From Chloroflexota bacterium (GTDB taxonomy: Bacteria; Chloroflexota; Dehalococcoidia; Lucifugimonadales; Australimonadaceae): a DNA stretch of 37,307 nt. The notes under the pieces were generated by a model, which saw only the letters and a program-made list of their open reading frames with translations, was not told where the DNA came from and did no database searches. Made by a program: the position numbers and the translations under genes. Shown here piece after piece: positions 15,141-21,753 of this stretch. Each line of letters opens with the position of its first letter. The first letter of the stretch is position 1. The stretch lies in assembly GCA_009838965.1 (NCBI GenBank), contig VXQP01000106.1, positions 1 through 37,307 of the forward strand, given 5' to 3'.

Positions 15141-15557
15141 ATGGGCCCCGTAACCATCTCACGCCGGTTCGACTTCTCCGCCAGCCACCGCTACTACCGC
15201 GACGACTGGAGCGAGGAGGAGAACCGGCGTGTCTTCGGCCTCTGCGCTCTGCCCAACGGCCACGGCCACAACTACACACTGGAGGTCGCCGTCTCCGGCG
15301 AGCCCGACCCGGCAACCGGCATGGTCATCAACCTCGTCGACCTCAAGTCCGCCGTCGAGGGTGTCCTCGTCGACTTCGACCACAAGCACCTCAACCTGGA
15401 CACGCCGTGGTTCACCGACCGCCAGCCGACGACCGAGAACCTCGCCGCCGTGCTCTGGGACCGTATCGCCGACACCCTCGCAGGCGCGACGTTGTCGCGC
15501 TTGCGCCTCTACGAAGCCGACGACCTCTACGTCGACTACTTCGGAGCGACCGCATGA
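15141..15557 (+). CDS. 6-pyruvoyltetrahydropterin synthase-like protein, copy 1
   Basis: 138-aa T-fold enzyme of the PTPS/QueD family, which acts on 7,8-dihydroneopterin triphosphate. Zinc ligands are the His of FSASHRYY and both His of NGHGHNY. The catalytic Cys lies five residues before HGH (C-ALPNG-HGH), Asp-His is in DFDHKHLNLD, and Glu in PTTENLA. The C-x5-HGH spacing and the MVINLVDLK and TTEN stretches resemble tetrahydrobiopterin-type PTPS more than QueD, whose Cys is three residues before HGH. No clear Shine-Dalgarno is present. Its stop overlaps the start of a second copy (ATGA). QueD activity remains possible. Confidence 0.88.
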   Translation: MGPVTISRRFDFSASHRYYRDDWSEEENRRVFGLCALPNGHGHNYTLEVAVSGEPDPATGMVINLVDLKSAVEGVLVDFDHKHLNLDTPWFTDRQPTTENLAAVLWDRIADTLAGATLSRLRLYEADDLYVDYFGATA

Positions 15558-15970
15558 GCACGCCCGTCGTCCACCTTTCGCGGCGCTACACCTTCGCCGC
15601 CTCCCACCGCCTCTACGCCGACGCGCTCTCGCCCGAGCAGAACGAGGCCATCTTCGGCAAGTGCGCCAACCCCAATGGCCACGGCCACAACTACGGACTC
15701 ACCGTCACCGTCACCGGCCCCGTCGACCCGGACACCGGCTTCGTGATCCCGCTCGCCGAGCTCGACGACGCGGTCAAGCGCAACGTCCTCGACCTCTACG
15801 ACCACCGCTACCTCAACCTGGACGTGGAGGACTACTTCCACCTCGTTCCCACCGGCGAGAACATCGCCCGCATGGTCTGGCAGCGCCTCAGCGGCCCCCT
15901 CGCCGGACGCCTCGAACGCGTCATCCTCGACGAGACGCGCAACAACCGCTTCGAGTACCCCGCCCCGTGA
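15554..15970 (+). CDS. 6-pyruvoyltetrahydropterin synthase-like protein, copy 2
   Basis: 138-aa paralogue of the preceding gene, fused to it by a 4-bp ATGA overlap. It keeps the zinc-site His residues (FAASHRLY, NGHGHNY), the Cys of FGKCANPNGHGH, Asp-His in LYDHRYLNLD and the Glu of PTGENIA. FGKCANPNGHGHNY is strikingly like animal PTPS. The two copies are diverged over most of their length, so this is an old duplication, perhaps forming a heteromer or two sequential activities. Its TGA shares a base with the ATG of the short-chain reductase. Confidence 0.88.
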   Translation: MSTPVVHLSRRYTFAASHRLYADALSPEQNEAIFGKCANPNGHGHNYGLTVTVTGPVDPDTGFVIPLAELDDAVKRNVLDLYDHRYLNLDVEDYFHLVPTGENIARMVWQRLSGPLAGRLERVILDETRNNRFEYPAP

Positions 15971-18308: not shown

Positions 18309-18803
18309 ATGCGGGCCGCACAGGCATTAGACGAGTTCCGAAGCCGACATACTCCTCGGCACCCAAGGTCAACTTCAATCCCAGAAGAAGAACAACAGCT
18401 AAGCACCCAGGATGGACTTCGGCATCTGTCACCGGCCCCGGTGACAGATGTCTTGTTTGGAAAGCCTCCTGTGTCATTGGAAGATCCGGGGCAACACAGG
18501 TATCTATGGGTAATCGACGCTAGCGGTGTCCCCTACATCGGTGAGATACCGATCCCAGCGATTGGCATGAAACCAAAGCATACGAACTTGACGGGAGGGC
18601 AAGAAGCATACCTAGGAGGCGAAATGTGGTTCGCTTCCAGTGACGCCCTGTACATTTCAGGAGGTTCTGGTCGTTATCCTCCGCAGGATAGTCGCCAACT
18701 TGAAGAGGCGGGCGAAGTCTTGGAGTTATTTGACTATTCTGTCACTTCGTTGGGCTGGGACGATGGGACAGGAACAGCGAAACGCTTTCTGGAGGAACCG
18801 TAA
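18309..18803 (+). CDS. Unknown protein coupled to the HTH-metallopeptidase gene
   Basis: 164 aa. I do not recognise a named family. The C-terminal 115 residues look like a compact conserved domain: YLWVIDASGVPYIGEIP, the HTNLTGGQEAYLGGEMWF segment, LYISGGSGRYPP, and VTSLGWDDGTG near the end. The N-terminal 45 residues are polar and low in structure. ATG 18309 is the first ATG in the plausible coding part; TTG 18273 with AGAGG upstream is an alternative. The stop TAA shares its last A with the ATG of the next gene, so both are made from one mRNA. It has no membrane segment or signal peptide. Confidence 0.65.
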   Translation: MRAAQALDEFRSRHTPRHPRSTSIPEEEQQLSTQDGLRHLSPAPVTDVLFGKPPVSLEDPGQHRYLWVIDASGVPYIGEIPIPAIGMKPKHTNLTGGQEAYLGGEMWFASSDALYISGGSGRYPPQDSRQLEEAGEVLELFDYSVTSLGWDDGTGTAKRFLEEP

Positions 18804-20227
18804 TGAATAGCCTAACGCACATATTTGGGTCAAGTGCTGAAGGCCTTTCCCCACAAGCTGCGGCCCGGGCATCCAACAAGAACTTCGTCCGGAGTGAAGG
18901 CCAGCTAGCAGTATACGATCCCTCGCGGGATCCTACCGGTCATGTACTCACTGCATGGGAGGCGTTCACGGCGTACGGACTTGGTGTCCTTGAGGAAGCA
19001 GCCGACTATGGTTCTGCGATCTTGAGGCGCACTCAGGAGTCCCCTGGTACCGTCCTGAAGCGTCGGAGGGAAGCCCTTGACTTGTCCGCACAATCCGTTG
19101 CCAGAGCAGCGAAGATAGCACTAGCAGACCTCAAGTCTGCGGAATCCGGTGAATCAGCAGTCTCTCTCTCAACCTTGGAGCGCGTCGCGTTCGTGCTAGG
19201 ATTAGATGAGCGATTGCTTGCCTACAATGTGCACTCTGGCGGAGACGACAAACTAGCCTACCGCCTCAAGATGCTAATCGGGCAAGGCGACAATTCTCCA
19301 CGACTTGTTTCAGCCGGAACGGCTCTTCTTTTTGCCGAGGCGGCTTCAATTGCACGTGTGCAATTGAGACTACAGGACTGGCTTACAATCCCAATGGAAA
19401 AGGATTACTTTGAAATACACAAGAACTACGGATCGCCCAGCAATCCTGCTTGGAGCATCGGATACCGACTAGCGGAAGATTGCAGGAGGGCCTTGGGTCT
19501 CGGGGAGTCGCCTGTACCTTCTATGAGAGAATTAGTTGAGAAGCGGCTGGGCATCCCAGTGATCCAAGCCCGACTCCGCCAAGAGATTGCGGGCGCGACC
19601 GTGAGCACCAAGAACATTGACGGCGAACAAGTTCGGGGAGTGATTCTAAATACCGTAGGAGCCAACAAGAACGTCTGGGTACGACGAGCAACCTTGGCTC
19701 ACGAACTTGGGCATCTCCTCTATGACGCTGAAGAAAGCCTTGAAAGCGTCCGAGTTGACTCGTACGTCGACAGCCAGAAGGACCCTCAAAGGCAGGGGGT
19801 GGATTTTGTGGAGCAGCGTGCCAACGCTTTCGCCATAGCATTCCTAGCTCCAAATGACATGGTGCGGGACATGACACCCTCCCCGATTTCGGAGGAGTCC
19901 GTGTACCATGTCATGCGTACCTTCGGCATCAGTCAAACGGCGGCACGCTATCATGTTGCCAATTCCCACTACAAACAAGACAGTGTCCCCTTCTTATCGT
20001 TCAACTTGGAACCAACAGATGAACAAAAAGCCGCAGAAGACTTCGCTCTGGACTACTTCCCAATACTGTCCACACCGGATCAGCGCAGAGGTAGGATTTC
20101 GAGTCTAGTAGCAGTCTGTTATGAGCAAGGTCTTCTCTCTGAAGAGACCGCCTCTTTGTACCTTAGGTGCACACCGGACGAATTCGTAAGCAACCTAGCG
20201 CCTCTCCGGGAACTCCATAACATTTAG
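18803..20227 (+). CDS. XRE-type HTH protein with ImmA/IrrE metallopeptidase domain
   Basis: 474-aa regulator-protease. Residues 83-140 form a Cro/C1-type helix-turn-helix (TVLKRRREALDLSAQSVARA...LERVAFVLGLDERLL). Residues about 235-360 form an ImmA/IrrE zinc peptidase with HELGH at 300-304 and the third ligand Glu near 337 (VEQRANAFAIAFLAP). The C-terminal 110 residues are helical and of unknown role. Proteins of this design cleave or sense repressors in mobile elements, stress responses and toxin-antitoxin-like systems. The 82-residue N-terminal extension is unusual. It is coupled to the unknown gene upstream and flanked by transposase debris, so transfer is likely. Confidence 0.85.
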   Translation: MNSLTHIFGSSAEGLSPQAAARASNKNFVRSEGQLAVYDPSRDPTGHVLTAWEAFTAYGLGVLEEAADYGSAILRRTQESPGTVLKRRREALDLSAQSVARAAKIALADLKSAESGESAVSLSTLERVAFVLGLDERLLAYNVHSGGDDKLAYRLKMLIGQGDNSPRLVSAGTALLFAEAASIARVQLRLQDWLTIPMEKDYFEIHKNYGSPSNPAWSIGYRLAEDCRRALGLGESPVPSMRELVEKRLGIPVIQARLRQEIAGATVSTKNIDGEQVRGVILNTVGANKNVWVRRATLAHELGHLLYDAEESLESVRVDSYVDSQKDPQRQGVDFVEQRANAFAIAFLAPNDMVRDMTPSPISEESVYHVMRTFGISQTAARYHVANSHYKQDSVPFLSFNLEPTDEQKAAEDFALDYFPILSTPDQRRGRISSLVAVCYEQGLLSEETASLYLRCTPDEFVSNLAPLRELHNI

Positions 20228-20509: not shown

Positions 20510-21671
20510 GTGGCTGGGGTGTCCAGAGTGGACATAGCAGAGGTTATCCGGCGGTGGCAGTGGGGGAACAGCCAGCGGTGTCCTAGCGTCGGGCACCGGG
20601 CTGTCCCGGGAGACGGTTCGCAAGTATGTGCGCGGCCCTGGAGGCTGGGATACGGGAGAGCGGTTCGGCCCCCACGGAGGAGCAACTCAGCCGTCTGGCG
20701 GCGATGGGGCGTTCGAGTCCGCGGAAGGCGGCGCGACCGGTCGACGGTCAGCCGGCTCCCTGGGCTGACCAGATATACCAGTGGCTCACGGTCAAGCGTC
20801 TGCAACTGACCCGCATCCTCGAGTTGCTGGAGGAACAGGGCTGCCGGGTCTCCTACACGACACTGAGGCGCTTCATTCAACGGCGCAACTGGCGGCGGCG
20901 CAGTCGCGCGACCGTTCGCATGGAATCCAGCGCGCCGGGAGAGGTGGCGGAACTGGACTTCGGACGGCTGGGACGGCTAGTCGATCCGGATACCGGTCGC
21001 AACCGGACGGTGTGGGCGCTGATCGTGGTGCTGTCCCACTCCCGGCACAGCTTCGTCTGGCCGACCTACGGCCAGAAGCTGGAGGATGTGATCGCGGGGC
21101 TGGAAGCGGCGTGGGCGTTCTCGACGGTGTTCCCCGCTACCTGGTCATCGACAACTTCCCCGCCGCGGTAGCGGGCGCCGATGCGCTGAACCCCCGGCTC
21201 ACGCGCGGTTTCCTGGAGTATGCCCAGCACCGAGGCTTCATCTGCGACCCGGCGCGGGTGCGCCATCCCAAGAACAAGCCCCGTGTGGAGCGTGGGATCC
21301 AATACGTGCGGGAGCGCTTCTTCAAGGGCGGCTGCTTCAGGGATCTGGCCCACCTGCGGGATGAGGCTGCGCGCTGGTGTCGCGACGTCGCCGGGCATCG
21401 GGTGCATGGCACCACCCGGCGGCAGCCGCTGGCGGTCTTCAAGGCGGAGGAGCGCGATGCCCTGCTCGCCTGGGACGGCGTCCCCTACGAGCTCACCGAT
21501 TGGCGCATCGCCAAGGTGCATCCCGACCACCACGTCTTCTGCCAGTACGCCCTCTATTCGGTGCCGGCGGCCCTCTGCCCGCCGGGACAGCAGGTGGAGA
21601 TCGGGCTGGGCGCCAAGCTGGTGCGCATCTATTACCGGGGCAGGTTGATCAAAGTCCATCCCCGGCAGCCT
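20510..21671 (+). pseudogene. istA: IS21 family transposase (istA), multiply frameshifted
   Basis: Three reading frames together encode an IstA-type DDE transposase. The N-terminal HTH reads DIAEVIRRWQWGNSQR in one frame and VLASGTGLSRETVRKYVR in the next. The core reads ELDFGRLGRLVDP (first Asp) and LIVVLSHSRHSFVWPTYGQ, then after a further shift VPRYLVIDNFPAAV (second Asp) and NKPRVERGIQYVRERFF (Glu). Frames break near 20577, 20638 and 21120; the last looks like loss of one C. The C-terminus after KVHPRQP is replaced by other sequence. No istB is present, so the element is dead. Confidence 0.85.
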
Positions 21672-21753
21672 TGCGGCCTGGATGCGCAAGCTGCTCATCA
21701 TCCTCAACGCCATGCTCAAGCACCGTACCCCATGGCGTGATTCTGGCTCCTAA
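21667..21753 (+). pseudogene. IS110-like transposase C-terminal fragment
   Basis: In a frame different from istA the sequence reads AAWMRKLLIILNAMLKHRTP and stops at TAA 21751-21753. This matches the conserved C-terminal tail of IS110/IS116/IS902 transposases (MRKLL.ILNAML...PW). The fragment abuts the truncated istA within a few bases, so one element apparently inserted into or recombined with the other. Confidence 0.6.

What the first reader, a model, noticed from the sequence alone, without database searches (positions are those of the whole stretch)
18309..20227. Coupled unknown protein plus HTH-ImmA/IrrE metallopeptidase: candidate undescribed two-gene system
An unrecognised 164-aa protein with a compact conserved-looking domain shares its stop codon base with the start of a 474-aa protein carrying XRE-type HTH and an intact HELGH zinc peptidase. 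The unit is flanked by transposase remnants on both sides and differs from neighbours in base composition. ImmA/IrrE proteins act with repressors in mobile-element control, stress response and toxin-antitoxin-like modules. Here the HTH and protease are already fused, so the first gene may be a toxin, effector or sensed substrate.
Basis: partly seen in the sequence, partly recalled or inferred. Interest (0 to 1): 0.7.

Follow-up and report, generated by a model that had tools for sequence, protein, structure and literature searches.

The report
Paired toxin-antitoxin-like operon, new partner
Two overlapping genes, an undescribed small protein and a DNA-binding zinc protease of a kind that acts as the antidote in known toxin-antitoxin and phage-defence pairs, travel together in unrelated bacteria, so the small protein is probably a new type of bacterial toxin or effector.

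Summary
The pair is real and is a conserved two-gene unit. ORF1 (18309-18803, 164 aa) matches no Pfam, NCBIfam, PHROGs or PADLOC model. ORF2 (18803-20227, 474 aa) has an XRE-type HTH, an intact HExxH...E M78/ImmA peptidase and an extra 80-residue N-terminus; its core matches RmrA, the antitoxin of RosmerTA. In all 13 ORF1 homologues with readable context (Chloroflexota, several proteobacterial groups, a cyanobacterium) a full-length ORF2 follows at once, and divergence of the two proteins is correlated. The pair is patchy: absent from all 5 same-genus and 10 same-family genomes searched. Some copies lie beside CRISPR-Cas, restriction or candidate defence genes. One full-length ORF2 lacks ORF1; it is fused to a DUF433 domain and followed by a DUF5615 PIN-like protein. 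This makes ORF1 the likely toxin or effector of an HTH-ImmA toxin-antitoxin-like module. Invariant H91, E105, S120, R122 and Y123 suggest an enzyme. Models of two divergent homologues both rank human phosphohistidine phosphatase PHPT1 first in the PDB, but at modest Z (6.5, 4.7) and without significant sequence support. Toxicity and phage defence are untested. I rate it a new variant of a known kind.

The parts
18309..18803 (+). ORF1, 164 aa: partner protein of unknown family, proposed toxin/effector
   Evidence: no hit in Pfam, NCBIfam, PHROGs, PADLOC or PDB sequences; 13 homologues, all followed by ORF2
18579..18599 (+). ORF1 motif H91-TNLTGG97 (H91 invariant in 13 pairs and in distant domain relatives)
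18618..18623 (+). ORF1 motif G104-E105 (invariant)
18666..18677 (+). ORF1 motif S120-G-R-Y123 (invariant; the loop that hhalign, without significance, pairs with the PHPT1 phosphate loop)
18803..20227 (+). ORF2, 474 aa: HTH-ImmA/IrrE fusion, proposed antitoxin and autoregulator
18803..19042 (+). ORF2 N-terminal extension, residues 1-80, not covered by the core-only RmrA-like relatives
19046..19222 (+). ORF2 XRE-type helix-turn-helix, residues 82-140
   Evidence: HTH_31 4.1e-5, HTH_3 4.1e-4; slightly under the curated cut-offs
19682..19951 (+). ORF2 Peptidase_M78 (ImmA/IrrE) domain, residues 294-383; H300, E301, H304 and E337 invariant in 13 homologues
20626..21740 (+). degenerate IS21 istA-like transposase remnant to the right of the unit (frame-broken)

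Best explanation
The two genes form a toxin-antitoxin-like (possibly phage-defence) module. Proposed working: ORF2 binds its own promoter through the HTH and holds ORF1 inactive; on a trigger (phage protein, DNA damage or incoming element) its ImmA-type peptidase cleaves an HTH repressor, most likely itself, which lifts repression and frees ORF1; ORF1, probably an enzyme with a PHPT1-like fold and an H-E-S-R-Y site, then acts on a phosphate-bearing cellular target and stops growth. Shown here: the conserved operon, co-divergence, purifying selection, intact peptidase motif, invariant ORF1 residues, patchy distribution, and replacement of ORF1 by DUF433/DUF5615 components in one relative. Inferred: toxicity, neutralisation, self-cleavage, trigger, and the chemistry of ORF1.
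For: All 13 ORF1 homologues with readable context have a full-length ORF2 directly after, in Chloroflexota, alpha-, beta-, gamma- and delta-type proteobacteria and Synechococcus. Genes overlap by 1-47 bases in 11 of 13 on the starts I chose and lie 1 and 17 bases apart in the other two. Pairwise identities of ORF1 and ORF2 correlate (r = 0.93 for 10 pairs, 0.85 for 13, Mantel p = 1e-4). dN/dS is 0.20 (ORF1) and 0.18 (ORF2) in the closest pair. The ORF2 core matches PADLOC RmrA at 2.8e-14 and capP at 5e-13; RmrA is the ImmA-domain antitoxin of RosmerTA (PMC10440598). ORF2 profile searches are bimodal: full-length hits of 388-652 bits against at most 180 bits for core-only relatives. The one full-length hit without ORF1 (L095:5361-7253) carries a DUF433 domain (5.8e-15) and is followed by DUF5615 (5.7e-20). 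Four core-only relatives have partner proteins matching the PADLOC candidate PDC-S70 or Pfam PIN weakly to moderately. Some copies adjoin type I-E CRISPR-Cas, a type IIG restriction enzyme, or Hhe/PDC-S06-like genes. The pair is absent from 5 same-genus and 10 same-family genomes searched. H91, E105, S120, R122, Y123 are invariant even in distant domain relatives.
Against: No toxicity, neutralisation or defence data exist. No PADLOC model matches ORF1. Several copies have no defence gene nearby (L006, L102 by inspection of their ORFs). Neither ORF1 nor full-length ORF2 was found in phage records or viral contigs, although TA and defence genes are often found there. The N-terminal extension of ORF2 also occurs without ORF1 in L095, so it is not strictly an ORF1-binding module. 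The PHPT1 similarity is modest (Z 6.5 and 4.7, a range the tool warns may be only a common arrangement) and PHPT1 Arg78 would fall on Glu105.
Confidence: 0.6

Rival explanations
1. ORF1 is not a toxin but a sensor or co-factor: it detects a ligand (for example a phosphorylated molecule) and controls the ORF2 peptidase, so the pair is a one-operon regulatory switch that acts on genes elsewhere.
For: ImmA/IrrE proteins need an activating signal in known cases (ImmA-ImmR, IrrE; described in PMC2701414, and in the abstract of PMC7907104). A small protein that is always present with the peptidase could supply the signal. The ORF1-like domain also occurs in large multidomain proteins, one with a Peptidase_C39-like domain, where a sensing role is as easy as a toxic one.
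Against: The one ORF1-less relative has TA-associated domains (DUF433, DUF5615) around ORF2, and core-only relatives adjoin PIN-like proteins. No conserved third gene that would be the regulated target was seen beside the pairs.
Confidence: 0.22
2. The pair is a stress-response regulator like IrrE-DdrO or ImmA-ImmR, with ORF1 as the substrate that the peptidase cleaves.
For: The peptidase motif is invariant in 13 homologues. ImmA and IrrE cleave a separate partner protein (PMC2701414, PMC7907104).
Against: In those systems the cleaved partner is an HTH repressor. ORF1 has no detectable HTH and its model is a mixed alpha/beta fold with an invariant polar residue set, which looks like an enzyme. 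The HTH is inside ORF2 itself.
Confidence: 0.1
3. A fortuitously linked accessory pair with a metabolic or housekeeping function for ORF1 and an ordinary regulator for ORF2.
For: In the window the left neighbour is an ordinary cellular gene (VIT1 family), and some other copies lie among ordinary genes.
Against: 13 of 13 linkage across distant groups, co-divergence, and absence from close relatives are unlike a housekeeping gene.
Confidence: 0.08

Closest known systems
RosmerTA (RmrT toxin + RmrA HTH-ImmA antitoxin)
   Same: ORF2 core (HTH + M78 peptidase) matches RmrA models (2.8e-14). Two adjacent genes. RosmerTA pairs RmrA with diverse toxins, and the ImmA node has the toxin gene first in 58% of cases (PMC10440598).
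   Different: ORF1 matches no PADLOC model. ORF2 is longer, with an 80-residue N-terminal extension. Phage defence is not shown.
Xre-COG2856 fusions beside PIN or RelE toxins (Makarova, Wolf and Koonin 2009, PMC2701414)
   Same: Fused HTH-Zn-peptidase encoded next to a small partner protein, sporadic distribution.
   Different: The partner is neither PIN nor RelE by any family search; the passages read do not describe an ORF1-like partner.
PADLOC candidates PDC-S70 and PDC-M69
   Same: PDC-S70-like proteins adjoin core-only ORF2 relatives; ORF2 matches PDC-M69B weakly (4.4e-5).
   Different: ORF1 matches neither.
CapH/CapP of CBASS
   Same: M78 peptidase with an HTH partner; capP model matches ORF2 at 5e-13.
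   Different: In CapH/CapP (from general knowledge) HTH and peptidase are separate genes within a CBASS operon; here they are fused, with ORF1 the only partner seen.
Human PHPT1 / Janus-Ocnus family (PF05005)
   Same: Best structural match of two separately predicted ORF1-family models (Z 6.5 and 4.7; next unrelated rows 4.2 and 2.7). hhalign places SGRYxP on PHPT1 SMAYGP.
   Different: No PF05005 match. hhalign is not significant (P 0.1-0.2). PHPT1 Arg78 would correspond to Glu105, and Ala96 to Arg122.

Membership tests
Type II toxin-antitoxin module | two small adjacent, usually overlapping genes inherited together | tested here: met
   13 of 13 linked, mostly overlapping; identity correlation r = 0.85
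Type II toxin-antitoxin module | one partner has a DNA-binding domain for autoregulation | tested here: met
   HTH in ORF2 residues 82-140, slightly under the Pfam curated cut-off; operator and repression not tested
Type II toxin-antitoxin module | one partner is toxic and the other neutralises it | not testable with these tools
   needs an expression assay
RosmerTA | RmrA-type HTH-ImmA antitoxin | tested here: met
   PADLOC RmrA models 2.8e-14 to 0.001 over residues 82-388; ORF2 is longer than the models
RosmerTA | an RmrT toxin of a listed type | tested here: not met
   no PADLOC model matches the window ORF1 or four homologues at E up to 1; I did not check which RmrT models the library holds
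RosmerTA | protects against phage | not testable with these tools
   needs a phage challenge
M78 (ImmA/IrrE) peptidase | HExxH plus downstream Glu zinc site | tested here: met
   H300, E301, H304, E337 invariant in 13 homologues; Pfam PF06114 6e-8
spr1629 family repressor/antitoxin (NF052239) | NCBIfam equivalog cut-off of 335 bits | tested here: not met
   26.5 bits
CapH/CapP (CBASS) | separate HTH and peptidase genes within a CBASS operon | tested here: not met
   HTH and peptidase are fused in ORF2; no CBASS hit among the neighbours scanned, though not every neighbour was scanned
PHPT1 / Janus-Ocnus (PF05005) | Pfam PF05005 match | tested here: not met
   no family hit up to E = 10 for ORF1 and several homologues
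PHPT1 / Janus-Ocnus (PF05005) | PHPT1 fold | tested here: inconclusive
   rank 1 for two models: Z 6.5, rmsd 4.1, 87 aligned; Z 4.7, rmsd 4.0, 84 aligned; both in the range the tool calls possibly only a common arrangement
PHPT1 / Janus-Ocnus (PF05005) | catalytic His53, phosphate-loop Ser94, Arg78 and Lys21 | tested here: inconclusive
   H91 and S120 are invariant and plausible equivalents by eye and by non-significant hhalign; Arg78 position reads Glu105; Lys21 not placed

The most novel reading that the evidence does not exclude
ORF1 founds a new family of toxins or defence effectors with a phosphohistidine-phosphatase-like (PHPT1/Janus) fold, which act by removing or transferring phosphate on an essential bacterial target (for example phosphohistidine proteins of two-component or PTS pathways), controlled by a self-cleaving HTH-ImmA antitoxin; the same domain serves in larger proteins, some of them near defence-like genes.
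Probability: 0.17. Interest if true: 0.82.

Novelty: new variant of a known kind. Interest (0 to 1): 0.58.

Why it matters
If true, it adds an undescribed partner family to the HTH-ImmA antitoxin hub, where known partners include PIN and membrane-active proteins, and gives a compact test case for how an ImmA peptidase in one chain with its HTH senses a trigger. If the PHPT1-like reading also holds, it would, as far as I know, be a first bacterial toxin or effector of that fold, and would raise the question whether histidine phosphorylation is a target in phage defence.

Tried and rejected
Single-sequence scan of genome contigs with ORF1 found nothing; the 4-row alignment was needed. Sequence searches of the PDB with ORF1 and its profiles gave nothing credible. 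Foldseek on PDB gave no match below E = 0.6 for either model; the PHPT1 match comes only from the VIA-align second look. Foldseek on viral models gave three hits at E below 0.001 (G8DGH9, E5EQ39, a Hyperionvirus protein), unnamed or uncharacterised, not followed. PF05005 in 200 proteobacterial genomes: no match over the cut-off, so no bacterial PHPT1 family could be built for a profile-profile test. I recalled plant IQM proteins as having a similar HSSxLxGG...SGHYRP segment; I could not test this and do not use it (only confirms that the plant family exists). Conserved operator upstream of ORF1: no shared inverted repeat and no consensus promoter. Membership in RosmerTA, CapH/CapP and spr1629 rejected (see membership test). 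Paper searches for a phosphohistidine-phosphatase toxin-antitoxin link found none.

Full report
Observation. The window encodes ORF1 at 18309-18803 (164 aa) and ORF2 at 18803-20227 (474 aa), joined by TAATG. ORF2 has an XRE-type HTH at residues 82-140 and a Peptidase_M78 domain at 294-383 with HELGH. GC falls to 0.53-0.55 over the pair, against about 0.67-0.71 on the left. The right flank holds a broken IS21 istA-like remnant; on the left I found no transposase match, only unassigned ORFs and then a VIT1-family gene. The window genome is a 3.0 Mb assembly with one copy of each gene. I infer that it is a member of the Dehalococcoidia (Chloroflexota) because a close relative of the pair lies in an uncultured Dehalococcoidia genome (61% and 60% identity); I did not test the taxonomy otherwise.

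Is it a conserved unit? ORF1 has no match in Pfam, NCBIfam, PHROGs or PADLOC, or to PDB sequences. Iterating from one Rhizobium plasmid hit and two same-phylum genomes to profile searches gave 13 ORF1 genes with readable context, the window's own included. In all 13 a full-length ORF2 follows directly. On the starts I chose, the genes overlap in 11 and lie 1 and 17 bases apart in the other two. Further ORF1 matches cannot be judged: L014 runs off its contig, and L010 is an interrupted ORF1 remnant on a 4.4 kb contig with no ORF2 match; L040, from the delta-type sample, was not resolved. Pairwise identities of the two proteins correlate (r = 0.85 over 13 pairs, Mantel p = 1e-4; r = 0.93 over the first 10), and dN/dS in the closest pair is 0.20 and 0.18. 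Related sequences share history, so the correlation shows co-inheritance, not physical contact.

Distribution. The pair is rare and patchy. ORF1 matched 3 of 400 genomes sampled in its own phylum, the window's own among them. In the proteobacterial and cyanobacterial samples the only full-length match was the seed genome (1 of 398 and 1 of 244), while the sample around the delta-type seed gave two more linked pairs. It is missing from the 5 same-genus and 10 same-family genomes searched. Nothing was found in phage records or viral contigs. Several copies sit beside defence-type genes: type I-E Cas3, Cas8e and Cas7e in L033, a type IIG restriction enzyme and kinases in L032, and Hhe- and PDC-S06-like genes in the Brucella pecoris locus L012. 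L009 lies next to a TniQ gene. Others, such as L006 and L102, lie among ordinary genes. I did not test whether the defence neighbours exceed chance.

What ORF2 is. Its core matches RmrA models (2.8e-14) and capP (5e-13) in PADLOC. RmrA is the ImmA-domain antitoxin of RosmerTA, and ImmA-domain antitoxins pair with many toxins (PMC10440598). HTH-COG2856 fusions beside PIN and RelE toxins were noted in 2009 (PMC2701414). ORF2 differs by an 80-residue N-terminal extension. Profile searches with full ORF2 in two phyla were sharply bimodal: four full-length hits (388-652 bits, two per phylum sample), then core-only relatives at 180 bits or less. Three of the four full-length hits have ORF1. The fourth (L051/L095, genome G429) has no ORF1; ORF2 is there part of a 630-aa protein with a C-terminal DUF433 domain (5.8e-15) and is followed by a DUF5615 protein (5.7e-20). 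An N-terminal segment of that protein weakly resembles HicA (E = 0.095, below cut-off), which I do not rely on. Among five plasmid-borne core-only relatives examined, partners in two match Pfam PIN weakly (one of these also PDC-S70), and two others match PDC-S70; the fifth matches nothing. So ORF1 occupies the place that toxins hold in related systems. That is guilt by association, and the strongest single argument for ORF1 as toxin or effector.

What ORF1 is. In 13 homologues W67, H91, N93-G97, G104, E105, G118, S120, G121, R122, Y123, P125, G149 and D151 are invariant. A related domain occurs in larger proteins and in one short one, including a 726-aa protein with a Peptidase_C39-like domain on a Pseudomonas aeruginosa plasmid. 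Across 15 aligned members W, H, G, A, GE and SGRY stay invariant. An invariant H, E, S, R, Y set suggests an active site. These distant relatives have no ORF2 homologue nearby, so only the small ORF1 branch is tied to ORF2.

Structure. AlphaFold models of the window ORF1 (pLDDT 87) and of the Synechococcus homologue, 33% identical (pLDDT 92), were built from the same eight sequences, so they are not fully independent. Foldseek finds no significant PDB match for either. The VIA-align second look puts human PHPT1 first both times: Z 6.5, rmsd 4.1, 87 aligned, next row 4.2; Z 4.7 and 4.2 for two PHPT1 entries, next row 2.7. These values are in the range that the tool says may be only a common arrangement. 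hhalign against PHPT1 is not significant (P 0.2 and 0.1) but picks the same segment twice, SGRYxP on SMAYGP, which in PHPT1 contains Ser94 and Ala96 of the phosphate site (PMC4817053). The order strand, His, helix, two strands, SGRY loop, helix, strand fits PHPT1 by my reading. PHPT1 Arg78 would fall on Glu105. I treat a PHPT1-like fold as plausible, about one in three, and phosphatase chemistry as a hypothesis.

Mechanism. Shown: conserved operon, co-inheritance, purifying selection, intact peptidase motif, invariant ORF1 residues. Inferred: repression by the HTH, neutralisation of ORF1 by ORF2, self-cleavage on a trigger, and toxicity of ORF1. Rivals, chiefly ORF1 as sensor of the peptidase, remain open. 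The verdict is a new variant of a known kind.

Noticed in passing
window 18421-18452: A 13-bp perfect inverted repeat (terminator-like, followed by TTGTTT) inside the ORF1 coding sequence; RNA fold z-score -4.2; absent from the homologous genes compared and from the rest of the genome. Function unknown.
   Followed up: partly
L095 5361-7593 (genome G429): A 630-aa fusion of an ORF2-type HTH-ImmA protein with a C-terminal DUF433 domain and a weakly HicA-like N-terminus, followed by a DUF5615 PIN-like gene: two TA modules apparently merged.
   Followed up: partly
L034 5300-7480 (Pseudomonas aeruginosa plasmid), also L031 6019-8277 and L035 5345-7504: 720-750-aa proteins with the ORF1-like domain at the C-terminus; the L034 protein has a Peptidase_C39-like domain and lies downstream of a multiubiquitin-ThiF-DUF6527 cluster with HTH and ImmA genes.
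   Followed up: partly
L046 2954-3520 (genome G1199): A distant ORF1-like protein with SGRF in place of SGRY, about 1.1 kb from a TsiV-type T6SS immunity gene.
   Followed up: no
L033 1-10000 (genome G133): The ORF1-ORF2 pair lies directly upstream of a type I-E CRISPR-Cas operon.
   Followed up: partly
window 15141-15970: Two neighbouring ORFs that both read by eye as 6-pyruvoyl-tetrahydropterin synthase/QueD-like proteins; not tested.
   Followed up: no
L010 1211-1339: Interrupted ORF1 remnant in a Chloroflexi contig without an ORF2 match, consistent with decay of the pair.
   Followed up: no
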